Assembly: GCA_947623805.1 (NCBI GenBank)
Contig: CANQHZ010000017.1
Location: 1 to 50,020 of the forward strand
Source of the DNA: an uncultured Lachnospiraceae bacterium
GTDB lineage: Bacteria > Bacillota > Clostridia > Lachnospirales > Lachnospiraceae
Direction of reading: 5' to 3'
DNA length: 50,020 nucleotides
Program-made: the position numbers and the translations under genes
Part shown: one piece after another, positions 35,873 to 48,201 of the stretch
Layout of the letters: every line of letters begins with the position of its first letter
Position numbering within the stretch: the stretch's first letter is position 1
The notes under the pieces: generated by a model
Told to the model about the DNA's origin: nothing
The model's database searches: none
What the model saw: the letters and a program-made list of their open reading frames with translations, nothing else

Positions 35873-35950
35873 GAATTTGGGTGAAATATACAAAATAAGC
35901 GACGTCTTGCGGAGCACCTAGTCGCGTTTTTGTATATTTCGCACAAATTC
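35873..35950 (+). repeat. Intergenic hairpin repeat, copy 1 (78 bp)
   Basis: A 78-bp near-palindrome from GAATTTG to CAAATTC. Its outer arms are AAATATACAAAA and TTTTTGTATATTT, the inner stem is GCGAC with GTCGC, and the loop contains TCTTGCGGAGCACCTA. The copy at 41423 (opposite strand) has the same length and loop, with paired substitutions in both arms. Located between the ilvN-like gene and ilvC. Confidence 0.8.
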
Positions 35951-38701: not shown

Positions 38702-39119
38702 CCTTTCAAAATATTGTATAATTAATTTTAATAAGTAAATTGCAAAACGTTTTTCAAGCTATGTGAATAGAGTTTCGCAAATGTCTAAATCGCATAACTA
38801 AATTACTTTTAATCACAAAACATATTTAATTATACAAAATATTCTGCTTTTAGTAAACCTTTATTTTAATATATTTTTTGGCATGGAATATTTTTGGATT
38901 GAGCCGATTGCTTGTTAATTGCTTTTTTTGAATTGATTTTGCGCTCATATTATGATAAAGTTATAGTTGTTAATTTTACTTAGATTGAAATATATTGAAA
39001 ATAGTGTGAAAACAAAGTTTTAATGTGTACGAAGTGAGAACAGCTTAAAATGGCTTGAATGAAATACTATATGTAAGTTTGTCATTATTTGAGCAGATGT
39101 GTACAGAATGGGGATTAAG
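38702..39119. other. AT-rich divergent intergenic region, no gene seen
   Basis: About 418 bases between ilvB (minus) and the acidic lipoprotein gene (plus). I see no convincing open frame, T-box or riboswitch motif. TTGCAA with TATACAAT downstream on the minus strand could be a weak ilvB promoter. It presumably carries the promoters of both genes. Confidence 0.5.
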
Positions 39120-39713
39120 ATGAATAAAAATAAATTAAAAATACTTTTGCTTGCTATAAGCGCTGCGGCGGGGATTTCAGGCTGCGGGAAAAATAGTGAG
39201 GAAGAAAAGGCACTGGCGGATTTTTCGCAGTCGATGTCTGATTTTTCGGTTGCGATACGTGAGGCGGACGAGAAGATAAATAGTCTTGATGTATCGAGTG
39301 ATACTTCTGTGGACGAGCTTTTGCAGATACTTGATGATTTGGATGCGGAATTTACGAAACTTGCGGAAATCGAGGTGCCTCCGCAGTATGCGGGGATTGA
39401 GCCGCTTGCTGACCAGGCCGGCGAGAATATGTCTGAGGCTGTGTCTTACTATCATTCGGCATTTGAGGCGGAAAGCTTCAATCAAAATGACGCCGACGTC
39501 GCTTATCAGTATTATGAGCGAGCCATGCAACGCGTGGAATATATCGGGTACATACTTTCGGGGGATGAAATTCCGGAGGACGAGAATGTCACTGTTTATG
39601 AGGAAGACAATGACAGTATGATTTTAGATAAGTGGCTGAATGATGATGATGATGATGAAAATGAAAACGAAAATATTGAAGATGCCGATGTTGGCGAAAG
39701 CAGTGTTGAGTAG
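39120..39713 (+). CDS. Acidic lipoprotein of unknown function
   Basis: Unrecognised 197-residue protein. A lipoprotein signal peptide is clear: KLKILLLAISAAAGISGCGKN, with lipobox ISGC (read in two parts). The mature part is helical and strongly acidic (residues about 25-160, many D/E, a possible helical bundle), ending in a D/E/N-rich tail with DDDDDENENEN. ATG 39120 has GGGG upstream; ATG 39099 would include it. A terminator follows. Function unknown; it sits at the start of the accessory envelope region. Confidence 0.65.
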   Translation: MNKNKLKILLLAISAAAGISGCGKNSEEEKALADFSQSMSDFSVAIREADEKINSLDVSSDTSVDELLQILDDLDAEFTKLAEIEVPPQYAGIEPLADQAGENMSEAVSYYHSAFEAESFNQNDADVAYQYYERAMQRVEYIGYILSGDEIPEDENVTVYEEDNDSMILDKWLNDDDDDENENENIEDADVGESSVE

Positions 39714-39869: not shown

Positions 39870-41351
39870 TTAGTTTGTGGGGTTATCCATTATGCCAATA
39901 AACAGCGGCACTTGGGTGTCCATGTCCATTATCATATAAACAAATGGACGGTTAAAATATAGCTCTATTGGCTGTTGCGGATCTTCGGCTGCGCCGCACT
40001 CCATTATTGCTTCTGTTGCCGCGGCTGCTTCTGTGCCTTGTTCATCTACTATTATCTTTGCTTTTTGACGCACTAATGATATGAAGATGTTTTGTCCGTC
40101 TTTGTCTGCGCCTATGTTGCTGAAATCGGCAAGCCCTGCGTCAAATGCGTTTTTTATGCCCATATTTTCGAGGCTGTCGTTGAGAATTTTGTCAAAGGTT
40201 ATTTCAAATTTGGGTAGTTTTAGATTGACTGTTTCGGTCGAGGCGTTGGATATCAAATCGTTGATGACTTCTGTGGTCAATTTGTTGTATACGTCCTCTC
40301 TTATGCCGTTGCTTATCATATCCGCCGTGCTATACATGTCGTCAGCGGGGATATCATAAAGGTTATAGTCACCGGCATCCGCTAATGCATAGTTACGCTG
40401 TTTGAGCGCTACGAAAGCAAGGCTGCATTGTGCTGTACTTTCGTCTGACGATGGGCTTTTGTATGGAAGTATTACGCCCTCTGCAAAGTCGTTGGCTATG
40501 TATTGGCAAGGTTCGTAGTATTTGTTCATCATCTCCGCTTCTACTTTTCCTTTATCTTCTTCAAGCGTAAATTCTTCTGTTCTTGTGTCGTTTGCGTCAA
40601 ATGGTTCCTGCCAGTCGGCTTTGAAGTATACTGTGTTGATTAGAGCAAGTCTTGCCTCGTCGCTTAGTGGTTCCGTGAGCAGCTTATCTATAAGTCCGTT
40701 GGTGTTTGTGTTTGTCCAGTCGTTTATTGCGTCCATTGTGGCTGTGTCTGAGAGTTGTGCCTGAAATATGTCGGCGTCCATCAGCGACTTGACTGTGCCG
40801 AGCCACTGCGTGTTTACATCGAGGTTGTGGTCAAGCCATGCGGAATTATTTATGGAAAGCTTTATTTCTTTGCTTTCTGCGTGCAAATTGTTCATTATGC
40901 TGTCTGAATATACGAGCATATTGTCCTCGCCTCCGCCGAGTGCGTCAATAAATTCCTTTTCGGTATCGCCTGATGCGCCTTCTGCTGCCATGGATAGGGC
41001 GAGGTATGCTGATATTGGGGAAAGTACGGGGTTTTCAGAGTCGATATTTTCATTAAAGAGCCTGTAGCTAAAATCCTGAACGGGGGTGTAATTGTCTATT
41101 TCGTAATCTATACAGACTTCTATGCCTAAGTCATCAGTAAGATTTTTAACAGAGGTGTTGTCAGTTGCTTTGGTTGTGTTGTTTTCGTGACTTTTATTTG
41201 TTGTTTTAATTATGTTGTTTTCAAGGCTTATGTCTGTCTGTGCGGGCTGACTGGCAGGAGGCTGGTCTGCCTGCTGTAAGGTACAGGCGCATATGCCTGT
41301 GATGCTGACTGCTGAGCTTAATAAAAGGGCTGTGATGCTTTTTCTTTTCAT
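39870..41351 (-). CDS. Lipoprotein serpin (inhibitory type)
   Basis: Serpins trap serine or cysteine proteases by a suicide conformational change. The 493 residues begin with a signal peptide ending in ICAC (Cys23 as lipid site), then a T/N/Q-rich linker to about 85, then a full serpin fold with LINTVYFKADWQEPF, an LPKFEI strand and the C-terminal signature FNRPFVYMIMD to PLFIGIM. The reactive-loop hinge DEQGTEAAAATEA (436-448) has small residues at every position needed for insertion, the mark of an inhibitor. The loop is about 5 residues longer than usual, so P1 lies within about 453-458 and the target protease cannot be predicted. AAAGGA precedes the ATG. Confidence 0.93.
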   Translation of the reverse strand: MKRKSITALLLSSAVSITGICACTLQQADQPPASQPAQTDISLENNIIKTTNKSHENNTTKATDNTSVKNLTDDLGIEVCIDYEIDNYTPVQDFSYRLFNENIDSENPVLSPISAYLALSMAAEGASGDTEKEFIDALGGGEDNMLVYSDSIMNNLHAESKEIKLSINNSAWLDHNLDVNTQWLGTVKSLMDADIFQAQLSDTATMDAINDWTNTNTNGLIDKLLTEPLSDEARLALINTVYFKADWQEPFDANDTRTEEFTLEEDKGKVEAEMMNKYYEPCQYIANDFAEGVILPYKSPSSDESTAQCSLAFVALKQRNYALADAGDYNLYDIPADDMYSTADMISNGIREDVYNKLTTEVINDLISNASTETVNLKLPKFEITFDKILNDSLENMGIKNAFDAGLADFSNIGADKDGQNIFISLVRQKAKIIVDEQGTEAAAATEAIMECGAAEDPQQPIELYFNRPFVYMIMDMDTQVPLFIGIMDNPTN

Positions 41352-41422
41352 GATTGGATTTGTTCCTTTCTTTTTTTAATTATAGTTTTGTTGGTAATTA
41401 TGAAGTATGTTTAAGACTGTCC

Positions 41423-41500
41423 GAATTTAGGCAAAATATATAAAAACGCGGCTAGGTGCTGCGCAAGACGCCGCTTATTTTATATATTTTGACTAAATTC
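41423..41500 (-). repeat. Intergenic hairpin repeat, copy 2 (78 bp)
   Basis: Read on the minus strand it runs GAATTTAG to CTAAATTC with outer arms AAATATATAAAA and TTTTTATATATTT, inner stem GCGGC with GCCGC and a loop containing TCTTGCGCAGCACCTA. Against copy 1 (35873) the stem changes are compensatory (A-T to G-C, C-G to T-A), and the length is identical. Located between the Ig-like lipoprotein gene and the serpin gene. Confidence 0.8.
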
Positions 41501-41566
41501 TATATTGTTGAATAAACTTTTGCTGTTTTTTATATACTGTTTTAGGCAAAATTTATGTTGTGGTGG

Positions 41567-42418
41567 TTATTTGATTGTAAACTCTGCGTGATAGGTATAT
41601 TGGTCATAATCGCCTGTGGCTCGGAAATCAACAATGGTTTTTGCAACCCGGTAGCTGCCTGGAGCAAGTTCTCCGTAAAACCAGGAATAGTCTATTTCCA
41701 GTTCTAGTGGTTTATCTTTTGGAACGATATAGGCTATTGCGTTGAAAGCGGCGTTGTCTATGATGAGGCCAAGGTCTTCCCAGCTTTGGTTGGTTTCATT
41801 GAAGTATTCTAAGCGATAGTCGTCGCCTGTTTCGATTTCTTTGTCTGTGTTGTTGGTGATTGTGACTGTGATTGTGCCGTTTTCAAGGTATGCGGCTTCC
41901 ATTGTCACGCCTTCTATTACTGTCGGCATCATTTCGCTGTGGGACTGTTTGGTATTTCCAGAGGGATTGATTTCGCTGTGGGAGCGCGGGTGCGATTTTT
42001 CAAATATTATCCATTTGTTTTCGTCTTCACTGCCTCCCTCTGGCATATAGACTTCTATTGTGTTTTCAGTTCCGTATTGGTATCCATAGCCTGTGCCGAA
42101 GTTTGACTGGTTATCCTGTGTCGGAAATTCTGAACCGTCGACAGATGAGGTAATCTGTCCATCCATCGTTCCGCACCGTATGTCTGTCTCGCTCTCATTG
42201 CCTGTGCTGTAGTACAGCTCGTCTTTTACCATTATGGCGGGGATTTTGTCTGATATTTCGGCTTGGATTGGCGTTTGCGTTTCTGTGGGAAATGTTATGC
42301 TGACTTTTTCTGGCGTGTTTTTGCCGCAGGCGGCTGACACGGTCAAAGTAAATGGTATCAAAGCCAATGCTGTTATGTGTGATTTTAAACGTTTTAAATG
42401 AATTTTATTTGTTTTCAT
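41567..42418 (-). CDS. Lipoprotein with C-terminal bacterial Ig-like domain
   Basis: 283-residue secreted lipoprotein: signal peptide ALALIPFTLTVSAAC with lipobox SAAC, a low-complexity S/T/Q/N-rich spacer (about 35-165, with repeated SHSE segments), and a C-terminal Ig-like domain (about 170-283) containing NGTITVTITNNTDKEIETGD and GELAPGSYRVAKTIVDF, a bacterial Ig-like domain often found in Clostridia. GGGGG lies before the ATG. It follows the anti-sigma gene by 27 bases, so it is probably the last gene of that operon and a surface output of the sigma factor. Confidence 0.75.
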   Translation of the reverse strand: MKTNKIHLKRLKSHITALALIPFTLTVSAACGKNTPEKVSITFPTETQTPIQAEISDKIPAIMVKDELYYSTGNESETDIRCGTMDGQITSSVDGSEFPTQDNQSNFGTGYGYQYGTENTIEVYMPEGGSEDENKWIIFEKSHPRSHSEINPSGNTKQSHSEMMPTVIEGVTMEAAYLENGTITVTITNNTDKEIETGDDYRLEYFNETNQSWEDLGLIIDNAAFNAIAYIVPKDKPLELEIDYSWFYGELAPGSYRVAKTIVDFRATGDYDQYTYHAEFTIK

Positions 42419-42445: not shown

Positions 42446-43366
42446 TCAATCTTCATCTTCAAAGCTAAATGCATAACCGTATTCGGGCTGAGGCTTGAAA
42501 TTATCAAGCTGCTCTTTGGTAAAAATGCCTGTGATGTAATAATATTCGTCTGTGTCAGTGAGACTTACGTCATAGCCGTTTTCAAGCAGGCGTTCGTATT
42601 CGGCTTTTAGTTTTTGGTGACCGTCTTCGCTTTGGTTTAGCGTACTGTACTGTGTTTCACCGTTGTCATTTATGATGTCGCCAAAGATTGTTATTTTGGC
42701 TTTGTAGGCGTATTCTGTCGCGTTGTTTTGGGCTGGTGAATTGGTCTCGTAGCTTTTTATGGCGGCGTCAAGGTAATGATGCAGGAAGTATTCGCCTTTT
42801 TCGGGTGCTGCATAACAGTATGCGGCGTAGGGCTGTTCTGTGACTGATTTTCTGCTGTCTATTATGGTGTATGTGTCGCTTCGGCTTTTTTCTATTTCTG
42901 TATCCGCTGGAATTGTTTCGGATAAATCTGATATTTCTTCCGATGCGGCATTGTCTGCTTCTGATTTGTTTGACGTAGGCTGGTCTGTTGATGAGTTTTT
43001 TTCCGGCTGCGCTCCTAAGTCTGTGGCAGAGCTGTCCGCCGCCATGCCTACGGATTGTGAATTTCCTGCAGTCTGTAAATCTCCTGTGTCTTCTGTGATT
43101 TCTGTAGCTTCAGCGACTTCCGCGGCGGACGTATCTGCTGTCTGTACTCCACTTTCACCCGACATTTCAGCATTTTTTGAGGGTGCGAAAACGGAGTATG
43201 CAAATGCGGACATTCCTAATATTACAGCAAAAGCTGCCGCTGTGTACATATATTTTTTGTATGATTGCCGCAAACGTGAGGTGTTGTTGACTGTGTTGGA
43301 CAATGCCTCCTCGATGAGCTCGTCATCGATATATTCCATAGCTTCTAGCAGGTCTTTTCCTCTCAT
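42446..43366 (-). CDS. Membrane anti-sigma-like protein of the 43363 ECF pair
   Basis: 306 residues: a cytoplasmic N-terminus of about 40 residues (YIDDELIEEALSN), one membrane segment (about 43-63), an extended S/T/E/A-rich extracytoplasmic linker (65-170), and a C-terminal domain (about 175-306, AAYCYAAPEKGEYFLHHYL). The start overlaps the sigma-gene stop (ATGA). This order and topology are those of anti-sigma partners of ECF factors, but there is no zinc-finger motif, so the cytoplasmic part would bind the sigma by another fold. Function inferred from position. Confidence 0.6.
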   Translation of the reverse strand: MRGKDLLEAMEYIDDELIEEALSNTVNNTSRLRQSYKKYMYTAAAFAVILGMSAFAYSVFAPSKNAEMSGESGVQTADTSAAEVAEATEITEDTGDLQTAGNSQSVGMAADSSATDLGAQPEKNSSTDQPTSNKSEADNAASEEISDLSETIPADTEIEKSRSDTYTIIDSRKSVTEQPYAAYCYAAPEKGEYFLHHYLDAAIKSYETNSPAQNNATEYAYKAKITIFGDIINDNGETQYSTLNQSEDGHQKLKAEYERLLENGYDVSLTDTDEYYYITGIFTKEQLDNFKPQPEYGYAFSFEDED

Positions 43367-43920
43367 AGCTCTACTCCCTCCTTTTCAAAGTGTTCACGTA
43401 GCTTGCCTCGCATACGGAAAAGCATTGATTTTACTTTGCTTTCGCTAATGCCGCAGGCTTCGGAAATGGTCTGGATTGAGTCGAGATACCAGTATCGGCG
43501 CACGAATACGCGTCGCATTTCGGGGCTTTGGCTATGTAAAAATTCACTTACTATGCGCCCGATTTCCTTGCTTTCCATTTTCTGTTCGAGGTCATTTGGC
43601 GCGGGTATGCAGTTTTCAAGCTCGTCGCTTAATTCTACTACTGTCGCGCCGCGTTTTTGGGCGTGGTAATAATCGTATCTGCTAAAAGAGAAATTGCGCG
43701 TGAGTTTGGCAAGGTATGCGAAGAAAAAGCTTGGTCTCTGCGGGGGCAGGGTGTTCCAAGCGGCGTGGTATGTGTCGTTTACGCATTCTTCGGCGTCTTC
43801 TCTGCTGTGCAGTATGTTCATCGACAGGCTGTGGAGCTTGCCGCCGTATTTTGTGGCTGTTTCGCTTATCGCGTTTTGCGAACGCTGCCAGTACAGCTCG
43901 ATTATGGCGTTATCTTCCAT
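43363..43920 (-). CDS. ECF-type RNA polymerase sigma factor
   Basis: 185 residues with sigma region 2 (SREDAEECVNDTYHAAWNTLPP, then FFAYLAKLTRN) and region 4 (SPEMRRVFVRRYWYLDSIQTISEACGISESKVKSML read in parts). GAGG precedes ATG 43920. Its stop overlaps the anti-sigma gene. It heads the sigma, anti-sigma, Ig-like lipoprotein string, which the serpin gene also follows on the same strand. Confidence 0.88.
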   Translation of the reverse strand: MEDNAIIELYWQRSQNAISETATKYGGKLHSLSMNILHSREDAEECVNDTYHAAWNTLPPQRPSFFFAYLAKLTRNFSFSRYDYYHAQKRGATVVELSDELENCIPAPNDLEQKMESKEIGRIVSEFLHSQSPEMRRVFVRRYWYLDSIQTISEACGISESKVKSMLFRMRGKLREHFEKEGVEL

Positions 43921-44104
43921 AGTGTTACCTCGTTTTGATGATTTTTGAGCACTTATAAGTGGTATGGCTGAATTTTATGTTACTTGGTATATTTTTGTAA
44001 ATGCTTATGTTTTTGATTTTTGGCTTGTTATTTGCTGTTACTATTATAGACGGAAAATTTCTGTCGCGGTTGCATTTTTTATGAAAAAATTTTTTGACTT
44101 AAAA

Positions 44105-44171: not shown

Positions 44172-44975
44172 CTAAATGTGAAAAAATCTACTGGTAATTA
44201 GCTTTATTAAGTCAATTATGACTGCTGTCGCGATGCCCTCCGCAAAAAGTGAAGAAAGGCTTGCTGATACATTGCGGGCGTAATTTTCGGGTGTTGTCAT
44301 ATGGTAAAGCATTGTAATATATGCAAGGGATATACTTATGCCTGTGAGCGTAAATGCGTAAATTTCGCGTTTTATCTGATAGTCCCTGTATTTTTGGATT
44401 ACTGATATTATAAGTATGGCGGTTTGGGCTATGGCGAGTGCTGCAAGGCATTTTGTCATAAATGGCCCAAGCTTATTAACCGGCATATTAAACGGAGTGT
44501 GACCGCTGTTTATCCAGTTAAGGCTTTGTGGCAGCAGCGATATTGTGGCGGCTGTCACAAACAGGCTCAATATTATAAATACTGCTGACTGCTTTGTCTT
44601 TTTCTGCGTAAAGCTGTCCTTTGGCAGAAACGCGTATGCAGCGACTATGAAAACAGGCAGGATTATGTTGTACATTCTTATGGGTATTCTGCCAATCCTT
44701 GTGATGACTGCGACTGTTCCGACAGTGCATATAAATAAAAATATCCCAATTGCAAATATGTTTAGTTGGTAATGGCGTTTTACCTTTTTCATGTATTGAA
44801 GTTGTTTGGGTTCGTTTTCTTCGGCTGTGAGTTCTTTTTTCATTGTTTCCAGGTATGCTTTGCAGGTTTGGCAGGTCGAGATATGCTCGTCTACCGCGTG
44901 TCTGCTTTCGTCTGAGCAGATTTGGTCTATATACGATGGCAGCAGGTCTTTTATTATGTTACAGCTTATATTCAT
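44172..44975 (-). CDS. Zinc-finger anti-sigma factor, multi-pass membrane protein
   Basis: 267 residues. The N-terminus carries a zf-HC2-type motif: a leading Cys (MNISCNI), then HAVDEHISTCQTC giving H-x3-C-x2-C. After a charged linker there are about six membrane segments (roughly 70-265), so it is not the usual single-pass anti-sigma. ATG 44975 has GGAGG upstream. It is downstream of the 45106 sigma gene on the same strand, supporting the pairing; the signal it senses is unknown. Confidence 0.8.
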   Translation of the reverse strand: MNISCNIIKDLLPSYIDQICSDESRHAVDEHISTCQTCKAYLETMKKELTAEENEPKQLQYMKKVKRHYQLNIFAIGIFLFICTVGTVAVITRIGRIPIRMYNIILPVFIVAAYAFLPKDSFTQKKTKQSAVFIILSLFVTAATISLLPQSLNWINSGHTPFNMPVNKLGPFMTKCLAALAIAQTAILIISVIQKYRDYQIKREIYAFTLTGISISLAYITMLYHMTTPENYARNVSASLSSLFAEGIATAVIIDLIKLITSRFFHI

Positions 44976-45105
44976 ATTTTCCTCCATTTCTGCGCTGTCA
45001 TTTGACGTGGGGTAAGGGGTGTGTGGGCTTGAGGCAGGCAGCGCGCACACTGCCACAAGCTTTTGCATTTTTTTAATTGTTTTTGCGGTACGCAAGGCAT
45101 ATTTT

Positions 45106-45588
45106 CTATTGTATAAAGGTTGACAGTAACCGTTCCTTGCCGCGGTAAAAGTTCACGCGCGCCCAGTTTTCACTTTTTCCCATTATTTCGCCTATTTCTC
45201 TGAATGAAAGATTTCCTGTCACACGAAGATATATGACCTCGCGCATCTGTGGCGGGAGCTTTTGCATTTCTTTTAGGACGTCGAAAAGTTCACATTTTGC
45301 GATTGCCGCATTTTCAGCACTTGAGGCGTTTGAAAGCCTGTCCGTAAAGGCAGTTTCCTCTGTGGGGATTTCGCGTCCTGATTTTTCAAGGTATCTGTAA
45401 TACAGGTGCTTTGCGATTTGGCATAGCCACACGGAAATTTTGCAGCTGCCGTCAAAGCGCTCAAGCGATTTGTACGCCTGTAGGAAAGTTTCTTGTGTCA
45501 GGTCCTCGGCTAATGCCGCATCGTGACAGCGTGAATAGAGGAAATGGTATACAATTTTTGAATTTTCGCTGTATAGTTCTTCTTCCAT
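45106..45588 (-). CDS. ECF-type RNA polymerase sigma factor
   Basis: 160 residues with region 2 (ALAEDLTQETFLQAYKSLERF) and region 4 (LPPQMREVIYLRVTGNLSFREIGEIMGKSENWARV, read in parts). ATG 45588 has GAGG at 6 bases; the frame is open to 45666 but without a better start. Followed by the zinc-finger anti-sigma gene. It is unrelated in detail to the 43363 sigma. The M56 peptidase gene lies upstream on the same strand with a 117-base gap. Confidence 0.9.
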   Translation of the reverse strand: MEEELYSENSKIVYHFLYSRCHDAALAEDLTQETFLQAYKSLERFDGSCKISVWLCQIAKHLYYRYLEKSGREIPTEETAFTDRLSNASSAENAAIAKCELFDVLKEMQKLPPQMREVIYLRVTGNLSFREIGEIMGKSENWARVNFYRGKERLLSTFIQ

Positions 45589-45705
45589 ATTATTCCTCAT
45601 CTCCTGCCAAAATAAGGCGTAAATAGACGGTTTCTGTCTTCTGCTATATATATCCGATTTACGCAAAATTTGTTACAGAGATTTTTGTTAAAAATAATGA
45701 TTGCT

Positions 45706-48165
45706 CTATTTTTCTAAGCCGTATCCGCTTATTTTCCACTCGCCGTTTTCATTTATGAAAGTTGCACAAAGATATGTCCATGTATCCTCGTTTGACGTGA
45801 TAAACGGCTTGGAGAGCGTATATTTCTCGGAAACGTGCAAAGTGCTGATGCCATCTAAGCCTTTTATATCCTGCATATCCGTTATTTTGGTCTGCTGCGG
45901 ATTTTCGTATACTTCTATGTCCTGACTGAATGCGGACGCCAAATAATCCTTTACCAATTCGCCGTTGCCGCTGAAATATGCGTTAGAGAAGTCCTCCATT
46001 TTCTGTTTCAAATTTTGCACTTCCGCCATTTCTGTTTCCCAGACTTGGACAGTTTCCCATATTCCTATGTTTCCAATCCGATTTATCTGCTCCGCCTTAT
46101 ATGGTTTGAGCATGAAATTCAGGTGGCGTCTTTCGCCGTCCACTAAGACTTGACAACTTCCCTGCACTTCGGTCGTGGAAAGTGTTGTTATGCCTATGCT
46201 TTCTACCTGTACGGTCTTTGCGGGTGATTTTTCATATTGAAAATGAGTGCCTGCTGAATTGTCAAAGCCTTGCATATAATAATCCTGAGCCTCATATAGC
46301 AATTTATCATTCAGTTCGTTGTGAAAAACTTCTGCATTGCCCAGCGCAAAGTTTCCGCCGTCGCTATATTTGACCTCCGCGCGTATGCTACTGCCGTTGT
46401 AATCCGCAATCACGCTTTCATCTGTAATAAATTCTATCTCCGCGCTGACGCTTAATTTTCCGTCGCCTGCCGAATTAACGTCCGTCCAAAACCTAATCTG
46501 GTCTCCAATAAGTATATCGTCATACAGCTTTCCGCTTTCGTCAGCAAGCAGCGCAAATCCTGCCTCCTCGCCGTCCACATACGGCTGTGTACCCGCCTCG
46601 GTTTCAGCAAATGAGAGATGTCTTCGCAATTCTTCCAGATAATCGTCGTCCAAATATTGATATACATAAAGCTCTCCGTCGGCGTTTTGGTCTGCCACAA
46701 AGAATGTGTCAATAGAAACTCCCGTCCCATGCATCAGATTTAAAATAATCGAAAGCTCCGTTTCTTTGTCGCCATCATAGTCAGCCTCGCATATTTCGGG
46801 AAGATATCCCCAGTTGCTCATATACTCACATGAAATCAGCGCATAGCTGCCATTCTTTTCAAGCAGCATGGTCTGAAAATCGCCTTTTCCGTACAGTCGA
46901 AAATCATCAGTCTGCGCCAGCAGATATGTATAATTTTCTGTCCCCGCCTCCGGCTCATAGCCTAGACTGCTAAAGCCGCCACGGAGGTCTCGCACATCGC
47001 TCATATTCCACCCTGTTTCTGTCGGTTCGCAAGGCATGCCTATAACTGCCATATCGTAGAACTCGAGCGGCTTTTCATCGGCAGCGTTTTCTTTTTTAGA
47101 AACATCTGTTGAGGCGGCAACGGCGATATCTGACACATCCTCATGCTCGCTTCTGTCCACGGGGCGAAGCATAAGTCCCAGTGATATTATGATTACTACC
47201 GCGACTGCTATGAATGTAAATACAACGCTTTTCTTTTTTTCTTTTAATACGTTTTTGATACGGCTTTCCAGCGCGGGCTTGCCGAAATTAAGCGCTGTAA
47301 ACGTAAATCCGCTTTGTGCCGCCGCAAACTTCAACAGGCTTTCCGCATACTGCCTGCGTATTTTTCCGCCGCTGTCCGACATCACCCTTTCATCGCACGA
47401 TACCTCCATGTCCTGACAAAACAGCAGATATGCTATCCATGCAAAGGGATTGAACCAGTGTACCGCCGTAATACATAGCGCGGCAGGTTTTAACAGATAA
47501 TCCTTTCTTTTCTTGTGATAAAGTTCATGTGCAAGGACGTATGCGCGCTCCTCCTGCGACAATCCGTGTGGCAGATATATTATCGGGCGGAATAACCCGA
47601 GTAAAAATGCGCCGCCGTCAATGTCTATTTCGCAGATACGCTGTATAGAGTCAAAGTAAATATTTTCAGCGCGCATAATCTGCTTTTTCAGGCGCAGATA
47701 TTCTGCCAAATTCACGCCTATGATTGCAAACACTCCCAACAGCCATATGATTTCTGCCGCTTTAAAAATGATGCCTGTTCCTCCGTTGCCGTTTGTACTT
47801 TTGGCATTGCTTTTTGCCTGATATTGTGCCAACACATCAGAGTTTTCTGATACGTCTGAACTGTCATTTCGGTTTACAGCCTGACTTTTATTTGCCTGAC
47901 TGTATATCATGTCGTCGTTTAATTGGCTATCCGATAACAATTTTTCTTCCCTCATCACGGAAAACTCCGCTACACGTTTTGGGATAAGGCTGAAATGGCT
48001 ATGTATTGAGAACGGAATACACAAATTTAAAAATACTATTATCCATAAACAATAAGAATATTTTCTCTCGCATTTCCAAAGAAGTCTTCTGATGAACATT
48101 ACAACAAGTGTGCTATAGCAGCCTACTATGCTCATTTCCAACACTTTTGTAAAAATACTATCCAT
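45706..48165 (-). CDS. BlaR1-like M56 family membrane metallopeptidase with a long non-PBP ectodomain
   Basis: 819 residues. The N-terminal part has membrane segments (about 8-30, 38-58, 138-156) around the M56 zinc peptidase domain with HELYH (213-217) and the downstream glutamate in DMEVSCDE. After a further membrane segment (about 315-335) comes a roughly 480-residue extracytoplasmic part without SxxK, SxN or KTG motifs, so it is not a beta-lactam sensor. It is rich in acidic residues and contains paired YD..E segments. ATG 48165 has GGTGGGG upstream. The BlaI-like gene lies directly upstream, so it is the sensor-protease half of a two-gene switch. Confidence 0.88.
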   Translation of the reverse strand: MDSIFTKVLEMSIVGCYSTLVVMFIRRLLWKCERKYSYCLWIIVFLNLCIPFSIHSHFSLIPKRVAEFSVMREEKLLSDSQLNDDMIYSQANKSQAVNRNDSSDVSENSDVLAQYQAKSNAKSTNGNGGTGIIFKAAEIIWLLGVFAIIGVNLAEYLRLKKQIMRAENIYFDSIQRICEIDIDGGAFLLGLFRPIIYLPHGLSQEERAYVLAHELYHKKRKDYLLKPAALCITAVHWFNPFAWIAYLLFCQDMEVSCDERVMSDSGGKIRRQYAESLLKFAAAQSGFTFTALNFGKPALESRIKNVLKEKKKSVVFTFIAVAVVIIISLGLMLRPVDRSEHEDVSDIAVAASTDVSKKENAADEKPLEFYDMAVIGMPCEPTETGWNMSDVRDLRGGFSSLGYEPEAGTENYTYLLAQTDDFRLYGKGDFQTMLLEKNGSYALISCEYMSNWGYLPEICEADYDGDKETELSIILNLMHGTGVSIDTFFVADQNADGELYVYQYLDDDYLEELRRHLSFAETEAGTQPYVDGEEAGFALLADESGKLYDDILIGDQIRFWTDVNSAGDGKLSVSAEIEFITDESVIADYNGSSIRAEVKYSDGGNFALGNAEVFHNELNDKLLYEAQDYYMQGFDNSAGTHFQYEKSPAKTVQVESIGITTLSTTEVQGSCQVLVDGERRHLNFMLKPYKAEQINRIGNIGIWETVQVWETEMAEVQNLKQKMEDFSNAYFSGNGELVKDYLASAFSQDIEVYENPQQTKITDMQDIKGLDGISTLHVSEKYTLSKPFITSNEDTWTYLCATFINENGEWKISGYGLEK

Positions 48166-48201
48166 AATTTTCCCCACCTGTCACATTGAAATACATAGCG
48201 C

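What the first reader, a model, noticed from the sequence alone, without database searches (positions are those of the whole stretch)
39870..41351. Lipoprotein-anchored inhibitory serpin in a likely gut-type Firmicute
A full serpin fold follows a lipobox and a spacer, and the hinge GTEAAAATEA has the small residues required for inhibitory insertion. The reactive loop is about 5 residues longer than usual. Serpins in some gut bacteria inhibit host or microbial proteases; a surface-anchored one beside an ECF sigma operon suggests regulated protease defence.
Basis: partly seen in the sequence, partly recalled or inferred. Interest (0 to 1): 0.7.

Follow-up and report, generated by a model that had tools for sequence, protein, structure and literature searches.

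The report
Surface serpin wired to stress switch
A gut bacterium carries a membrane-anchored protease inhibitor of the serpin family inside the operon of an envelope-stress sigma factor, and in some related bacteria the serpin is even fused to what looks like the sigma factor's membrane inhibitor, which suggests that these bacteria sense protease attack and answer it with serpins.

Summary
The serpin is real: 493 aa, PF00079 at 5e-80, lipobox, insertable-type hinge, the only serpin found in this genome. The serpin is the last gene of an operon: ECF sigma, anti-sigma, Big_14 lipoprotein, serpin. It is headed by a motif, GCAAC-N14-TCCNTCT, that occurs once in the 3.96 Mb genome, at this operon. 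Among 48 of 53 genus matches opened, 21 lie before sigma, serpin or a Big_14 lipoprotein gene; the other 27 lie inside ORFs or near no gene. Sigma and serpin are neighbours in 18 of 24 distinct genus loci. Outside the genus, 14 of 100 loci have a same-strand sigma within 1.5 kb of the serpin, about 1.4 expected. Five serpins of those 100 loci match an anti-sigma-domain model at their N-terminus; four of the five sit in sigma operons. Best reading: an autoregulated, probably protease-responsive surface-defence module; in the fusions the serpin is the likely sensor, a protease counterpart of the lysozyme receptor RsiV. Inhibition, signal and target are untested. I found no report of this coupling in the library searched.

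The parts
44048..44073 (-). putative ECF-type promoter GCAACCGCGACAGAAATTTTCCGTCT heading the operon, 128 bp upstream of the sigma ATG
   Evidence: only match of GCAACN{11,15}TCCNTCT in the window and of GCAAC-N14-TCCNTCT in the own genome; same motif upstream of serpin operons in the genus
43363..43920 (-). ECF sigma factor, 185 aa
   Evidence: Pfam Sigma70_r4_2 2.5e-6, Sigma70_r2 1.7e-4 just below its cut-off; TIGR02937 sigma70-ECF 1.9e-15
42446..43366 (-). anti-sigma factor (inferred), 306 aa: cytoplasmic helices, one TM helix (36-60), disordered linker 61-161, folded C-terminal domain from about 165; overlaps the sigma gene by 4 nt
   Evidence: position and overlap; AlphaFold2 model from 5 sequences; no Pfam match
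41567..42418 (-). lipoprotein with Big_14 Ig-like domain, 283 aa; a related domain ends the anti-sigma in L003 and L005, and relatives elsewhere in the genus follow the same promoter motif
   Evidence: Big_14 2.3e-20; fusions; promoter sites
41415..41518 (-). 104-bp palindromic repeat element between the Big_14 gene and the serpin gene, about 41 copies found in the genome
   Evidence: 215-nt intergenic stretch folds at -39.3 kcal/mol, z -5.1; 82 alignments, of which about half are the palindromic partner of another, from 40 scored of 108 candidates
39870..41351 (-). lipoprotein serpin, 493 aa
41283..41294 (-). lipobox I-C-A-C, lipidated Cys expected at residue 23
   Evidence: sequence; relatives
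39942..40037 (-). hinge and reactive-centre loop, residues 439-470; canonical P1-P1' would be Gly453-Ala454
   Evidence: sequence and genus table; cleavage site inferred from spacing
40308..40391 (-). insertion of about 28 residues (321-348) in the serpin body, seen only in the window and L003-L005 among 12 aligned serpins; it lies where the Pfam match is split

Best explanation
The gene encodes a lipid-anchored surface serpin of inhibitory type, made as an output of an autoregulated ECF sigma / anti-sigma operon. The sigma factor recognises the GCAAC-N14-TCCNTCT promoter at the head of its own operon and so raises sigma, anti-sigma, a Big_14 lipoprotein and the serpin together. The most likely signal is extracellular proteolysis (or a protease bound at the surface) acting on the anti-sigma ectodomain, whose disordered linker of about 100 residues is a natural cleavage site, followed by intramembrane proteolysis. 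The serpin then traps the attacking protease, closing a negative feedback loop. In relatives where anti-sigma and serpin are one protein, the serpin domain is probably the sensor. Shown by sequence: serpin, lipobox, hinge, gene order, conserved motif, recurrence, fusions. Inferred: that the sigma uses this promoter, that the membrane protein is its anti-sigma, that proteases are the signal, that the serpin inhibits, and which protease.
For: Serpin with conserved insertable hinge. Sigma and anti-sigma genes overlap and precede the serpin; sigma adjacent in 18 of 24 distinct genus loci. Motif once in the own genome, at this operon. Of 53 genus matches 48 were opened: 10 before sigma, 10 before a Big_14 lipoprotein, 1 before a serpin, 24 inside ORFs, 3 with no gene near, none labelled as before another gene within 300 bp. 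One genus locus has the order motif-serpin-sigma-anti-sigma. L112, from another genus, has an exact motif match before its sigma-anti-sigma-serpin operon. 14 of 100 outside loci have a same-strand sigma within 1.5 kb, 1.4 expected, Poisson 3e-10. Fusions. One M50 site-2 protease candidate in the genome. Precedents: protease-inducible serpin in B. breve (PMC8012564, passages); RsiV both senses and inhibits lysozyme (PMC5014341, passages).
Against: No expression or biochemical data. In the window a strong palindromic repeat lies between the Big_14 gene and the serpin and could weaken read-through. 6 of 24 genus loci have a serpin without the sigma gene, and 86 of 100 outside loci have no same-strand sigma within 1.5 kb. 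On a quick tree the sigma link is hardly more clustered than shuffled labels (20 changes, shuffled mean 22.1), so it is not a stable trait of one serpin lineage outside the genus. Canonical P1 is Gly here, unusual as far as I recall; the true cleavage site may differ. The anti-sigma C-terminal domain matches no solved fold, so its ligand is unknown. The motif was derived from sigma upstream regions, so those matches are partly circular, and the reversed control pattern matches 29 times in the genus and once in the own genome.
Confidence: 0.6

Rival explanations
1. The sigma operon answers a general envelope signal (peptides, cell-wall stress) and the serpin is one protective output, with no protease sensing.
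For: The anti-sigma C-terminal domain and the Big_14 domain are not protease-binding folds known to me; ECF systems often sense envelope stress (recalled); the C-terminal domain had no PDB match.
Against: The exact motif in the genus points only to the serpin operon and Big_14 lipoproteins, narrow for a general stress response, though weaker sites were not sought; serpin domains stand in the place of the anti-sigma ectodomain in relatives.
Confidence: 0.25
2. The serpin guards the cell against its own secreted subtilisin-like proteases.
For: The genome has 7 matched Peptidase_S8 stretches on 5 contigs; cellulosomal serpins were suggested to inhibit subtilisin-like proteases (PMC12484212, passage).
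Against: None of the 7 lies on the serpin contig; secretion of these S8 proteins was not checked; surface anchoring and sigma control fit an outside threat equally or better.
Confidence: 0.2
3. The serpin is non-inhibitory (chaperone-like or structural) and the sigma link is incidental in this genome.
For: P1 Gly is unusual (recalled); inhibition untested; one sigma-linked serpin elsewhere (L147) lacks a normal hinge.
Against: The hinge is among the slowest-changing stretches in 41 genus serpins, and the residue at the canonical P1' is small (A, G, C, S or T) in 40 of 41; the sigma link recurs.
Confidence: 0.1

Closest known systems
Siropins of Eubacterium siraeum
   Same: Serpins of a gut Firmicute; inhibit human neutrophil elastase and proteinase 3 (PMC5127057, abstract and first of three parts of section 4)
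   Different: Predicted intracellular (Siropin 1) or extracellular (Siropin 2); no lipoprotein anchor or sigma operon mentioned in the part read; sequences not compared here
Bifidobacterium breve serpin with protease-inducible two-component system
   Different: Two-component system, not ECF sigma and anti-sigma; the primary paper was not held
RsiV / sigma V of Bacillus subtilis
   Same: Anti-sigma ectodomain both senses an attacking enzyme and inhibits it; released sigma raises its own operon (PMC5014341, passages)
   Different: Lysozyme rather than protease; RsiV was not compared with serpins here; in the window the inhibitor is a separate lipoprotein
Miropin of Tannerella forsythia
   Same: Inhibitory bacterial serpin of a host-associated species (named in passages of PMC10090351, and in the Fig. 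1 legend of PMC5127057); lipoprotein status recalled
   Different: Gram-negative (recalled); no sigma coupling known to me
RsgI anti-sigma factors of cellulolytic clostridia
   Same: Modular anti-sigma factors with exchangeable extracellular sensor domains (PMC3413522, passages)
   Different: Sigma-I type with carbohydrate-binding sensors; in the passages seen serpins appear only among other domains of dockerin-containing proteins

Membership tests
Serpin superfamily (PF00079) | full-length serpin fold by profile | tested here: met
   5e-80; profile positions 4-218 and 235-370 of 370; PDB serpins by sequence
Inhibitory serpin | hinge P15-P8 of small residues, Thr at P14 | tested here: met
   GTEAAAAT; kept in 41 genus serpins, none dropped for the hinge
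Inhibitory serpin | covalent SDS-stable complex with a protease | not testable with these tools
   needs purified protein
Inhibitory serpin | exposed loop and insertable sheet A in a model | tested here: inconclusive
   AlphaFold2 with 12 sequences gave mean pLDDT 38.5
Bacterial lipoprotein | signal peptide with lipobox and +1 Cys | tested here: met
   I-C-A-C with Cys23, by pattern and eye only; 34 of 39 serpin ORFs by pattern
ECF sigma factor operon | sigma70-ECF profile plus adjacent single-TM anti-sigma | tested here: met
   the anti-sigma role is by position and topology
ECF sigma factor operon | autoregulated promoter | tested here: inconclusive
   conserved motif with positional evidence; transcription not measured
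RsiV-type enzyme-sensing anti-sigma | inhibitor domain as anti-sigma ectodomain | tested here: not met
   in the window serpin and anti-sigma are separate proteins; serpin domain behind an anti-sigma-like N-terminus and TM in L132, L146, L210, L211
Siropin family | sequence kinship to E. siraeum serpins | not tested
   sequences not at hand

The most novel reading that the evidence does not exclude
Serpins are a recurrent sensor-effector module of ECF sigma signalling in gut Clostridia: protease attack on a serpin, either fused to the anti-sigma factor or anchored beside it as in the window, triggers the serpin conformational change, which sets off destruction of the anti-sigma and switches on more serpin. 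This would make the serpin trap itself a transmembrane protease receptor.
Probability: 0.35. Interest if true: 0.88.

Novelty: new variant of a known kind. Interest (0 to 1): 0.72.

Why it matters
How bacteria control serpins, and why gut commensals keep them, is little known. A sigma/anti-sigma/serpin module gives a concrete, testable circuit for sensing host or microbial proteases, a sequence signature (GCAAC-N14-TCCNTCT plus serpin) for finding it in this genus, and naturally fused serpin-anti-sigma proteins in which the conformational trap of serpins may act as a receptor.

Tried and rejected
Hypervariable reactive loop: rejected as a headline. Mean site rate of 14 loop sites is 1.38 against 0.83 for 339 body sites, but other surface stretches are faster. 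The canonical P1 does vary: G 21, R 8, A 7, M 3, S 2 of 41.

Structure of the serpin: the AlphaFold2 model was unusable, so no fold search was run on it. Fold of the anti-sigma model: no PDB match at E 0.001 or better, best 0.13.

Sigma density as chance: rejected, with limits. TIGR02937 gives 403 matches in 20 genomes, together about 59.8 Mb (my script used 59.3, a slip without effect). 14 of the 20 are the genomes with a linked locus. From this, 1.4 same-strand neighbours within 1.5 kb are expected in 100 loci against 14 seen, and 4.8 sigma genes anywhere in the loci against 19 seen. The neighbours were found with an HMM trained on these loci themselves, which may be more sensitive than TIGR02937, so the expectation may be somewhat low. 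The 100 loci were taken from the upper part of the lists of best matches, not at random. PF04542 gave 308 matches in a partly different set of 20 genomes.

Weak fusions: L217 (E 0.09) and L095 (E 1.0) do not pass the anti-sigma HMM test; L095 has a TM before its serpin and overlaps a sigma gene, L217 has no sigma near. With the cytoplasmic part of the domain alone only L146 (1.1e-4), L132 (1.8e-3) and L211 (3.8e-3) beat 1510 shuffles (best 0.059); L148 and L210 do not. Of four presumed anti-sigma proteins used as positive controls, two score better than 0.01, one scores 0.94 and one is not listed, so that short model is insensitive and the support for L148 and L210 rests partly on the TM region.

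Papers: searched serpin with siraeum, miropin and lipoprotein, B. breve and two-component, ECF sigma and anti-sigma, anti-sigma, prokaryotic serpins, and sigma factor with operon. Of the 12 papers listed, three were opened by term search and treat serpins and anti-sigma factors separately in the passages shown; PMC10059941 on B. longum and the others were not opened. Term searches inside the serpin phylogeny PMC8233489 (no 'sigma', 'lipoprotein' or 'operon') and the chloropin paper PMC10090351 (no 'sigma factor', 'operon' or 'lipoprotein') found nothing, nor did a search of the review PMC8201313 for lipoprotein or anchored.

Full report
What is there. The ORF at 39870-41351 on the minus strand encodes 493 aa and is a serpin by Pfam at 5e-80 and by sequence against solved structures, best tengpin at 6.4e-44. 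It is the only serpin found in the 3.96 Mb, 95.7% complete genome (two matched stretches of this one gene). Residues 20-23 form a lipobox, ICAC. The hinge reads GTEAAAAT. An insertion near residues 321-348 occurs only in the window and its three closest relatives among 12 aligned serpins.

Whose genome. Searching named genomes with the protein gave 8 loci, 7 titled Lachnospiraceae and one Clostridia; the three closest, at 93, 86 and 80% identity, carry isolate names Lapin-023, Lapin-012 and Lapin-024. In the genus, 33 of 38 genomes hold a serpin, and so do 18 of the 18 that are at least 90% complete and at most 5% contaminated (the own genome is counted).

The operon. Upstream on the same strand lie a Big_14 lipoprotein (41567-42418), a 306-aa membrane protein (42446-43366) and an ECF sigma factor (43363-43920), the last two overlapping by 4 nt. 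The membrane protein has the anatomy of an anti-sigma factor. An AlphaFold2 model from 5 sequences (mean pLDDT 58.4) gives cytoplasmic helices, one transmembrane helix, a linker 61-161 of very low confidence and a folded C-terminal domain, mostly above 85 from residue 221 on. The model has no PDB match at E<=0.001.

Conservation in the genus. Leaving out the repeats and L009, which is from another group, and adding the window and L031, there are 24 distinct genus loci from 23 genomes. In 18 of them the sigma and anti-sigma genes lie next to the serpin or serpins; in 6 (L040, L041, L042, L043, L054, L055) they do not. In one of the 18 (L010, repeated as L057) the called anti-sigma ORF lacks its N-terminal part. 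Flanks were not opened for the other 10 genus genomes with a serpin, nor for second loci. Serpins occur singly or as tandem runs of two or three with different loops. In L003 and L005 the anti-sigma ends in a Big_14-like domain, whereas the window keeps two genes. The distant L009 serpin (32% identity) also follows a sigma gene and a membrane protein.

The promoter. Comparing 17 sigma upstream regions, the pair TGCA-N15-TTCC recurs in 10 of 17; the best pair in any of 20 base shuffles recurs in 7. Reading the regions gave GCAAC-N14-TCCNTCT. In the window a slightly looser form, GCAACN{11,15}TCCNTCT, matches once, at 44048-44073 on the minus strand with 14 between, 128 bp before the sigma ATG; 10 of 100 shuffled windows hold at least one match. 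Among the 218 loci then held, 20 had a match of that form, 17 of them at genus loci and one, L112, before the sigma gene of a sigma-anti-sigma-serpin operon in another genus; the matches in L131 and L213 I take as chance. In the whole own genome the N14 form matches once, the same site; the reversed control pattern also matches once. In 38 genus genomes there are 53 matches against 29 for the reversed control (my sums). I opened 48 of the 53: 10 before sigma, 10 before a Big_14 lipoprotein, 1 before a serpin, 24 inside ORFs, 3 with no gene near; none was labelled as standing before any other gene within 300 bp. One of the 24, L224, is in fact a sigma operon whose start codon was called too far upstream. 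The 5 not opened lie by coordinates and strand at serpin operons. The Big_14 proteins were recognised with an HMM made from six of them, the window's and L004's; four of the ten were checked with Pfam. The Big_14 result was not built into the motif and agrees with the Big_14 gene in the window operon, the only match that such a relative finds in the own genome. In L031 the motif stands 41 bp before the serpin, followed by sigma and anti-sigma. Weaker sites were not sought.

Beyond the genus. In the family 105 of 299 genomes have a serpin (two of them, the own genome and G016, are of the genus) and in the order 84 of 245. I took one region each from 60 family and 40 other order genomes, from the upper part of the lists; some regions are cut by contig ends. 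In 14 of the 100 a sigma gene lies on the same strand within 1.5 kb of a serpin: L095, L097, L104, L107, L108, L112, L121, L122, L132, L146, L147, L183, L210, L211. From the sigma density (403 matches in about 59.8 Mb) 1.4 are expected, Poisson 3e-10 (limits are under Tried and rejected). On a quick tree of 122 serpins the sigma-linked or fused state needs 20 changes and well-supported branches force at least 12; shuffled labels need 22.1 on average, and 58 of 500 shuffles are as low. So the link was gained or lost many times and is hardly clustered outside the genus. The tree is a short search with 42 of 119 inner branches poorly supported.

Fusions. In some of these loci the serpin is one protein with an N-terminal cytoplasmic segment and a TM helix. 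An HMM made from the first 70 residues of 15 genus anti-sigma proteins was run on the first 140 residues of 151 serpins (112 from the 100 loci, 39): L211 1.2e-8, L148 3.8e-7, L146 4.3e-7, L132 2.5e-5, L210 1.3e-3; the best of 755 shuffled sequences reached 0.017. A model of the cytoplasmic part alone keeps L146, L132 and L211 only. NCBIfam's anti-sigma model also touches L211 and L210 at E 3.5e-4 and 6.5e-4, far below its cut-off score. Full serpin domains were confirmed by Pfam in L132, L146, L210 and L211. In L211 the fusion start overlaps the sigma stop codon just as in the window, and a second serpin with a lipobox follows; in L146 the fusion starts about 21 nt after the sigma stop codon; in L210 it overlaps the sigma gene as called; in L132 the order is sigma, serpin, fusion. 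L095 overlaps its sigma gene and has a TM before its serpin, but its N-terminus fails the HMM. L148 and L217 have no sigma beside them. With these seven labelled as fusions the tree needs 6 changes, all forced by supported branches (shuffled mean 6.9).

How it works. Most likely the sigma drives its own operon and the serpin is the output that protects the surface. The link to protease sensing is inferred from three things: the protease-inhibitor output of a very small regulon, the long unstructured anti-sigma linker, and the fusions, in which the serpin takes the place of the anti-sigma sensor domain. The genome has one M50 site-2 protease candidate, as such a cascade needs. RsiV in B. subtilis shows that an anti-sigma ectodomain can both sense and inhibit an enzyme (PMC5014341, passages), and B. 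breve shows a protease-inducible serpin under a two-component system (PMC8012564, passages).

What speaks against. A 104-bp palindromic repeat, one of about 41 copies found in the genome, sits between the Big_14 gene and the serpin and may uncouple them in part; L005 has only 27 bp there. Gly at the canonical P1 is unusual as far as I recall, although 21 of 41 genus serpins share it and the next residue is small in 40 of 41. 86 of the 100 outside loci have no same-strand sigma within 1.5 kb. Genes were called by a simple ORF rule, most genomes are draft assemblies, and no expression data exist.

Novelty. A lipoprotein serpin in a gut Firmicute would be a new member of a known kind. The coupling to ECF sigma factors, the conserved motif and the serpin-anti-sigma fusions were not found described in the library searches; most subscription papers are not in that library. 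I rate it a new variant of a known kind.

Noticed in passing
window 41415-41518 and 35887-35917: 104-bp palindromic MITE-like repeat; 82 alignments (forward and palindromic partners, about 41 copies) from 40 scored of 108 candidates in the own genome; a relative with 3 mismatches in 31 bases lies upstream of the ilvC-like gene in the window.
   Followed up: partly
window 39099-39713 (+): Small lipoprotein without Pfam match, convergent to the serpin; relatives in 10 of the 29 sources compared, in several between the serpin and the ilv genes.
   Followed up: no
window 44172-48177: A second ECF sigma (45106-45666), a zf-HC2 protein, probably its anti-sigma (44172-45095), and a BlaR1-type M56 protein with a long C-terminus (45706-48177) lie just upstream of the serpin operon.
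   Followed up: no
L006, L007, L050, L058 (tandem serpins): Tandem serpins have distinct loops that recur by position in several species (for example ..ARDGGGMLSEP in copy 1..MACGAA in copy 2), which suggests different target proteases.
   Followed up: partly
L095:3358-5514: Serpin with a TM segment before it and a leucine-rich-repeat-like region behind it (weak NCBIfam matches), directly behind an ECF sigma gene.
   Followed up: no
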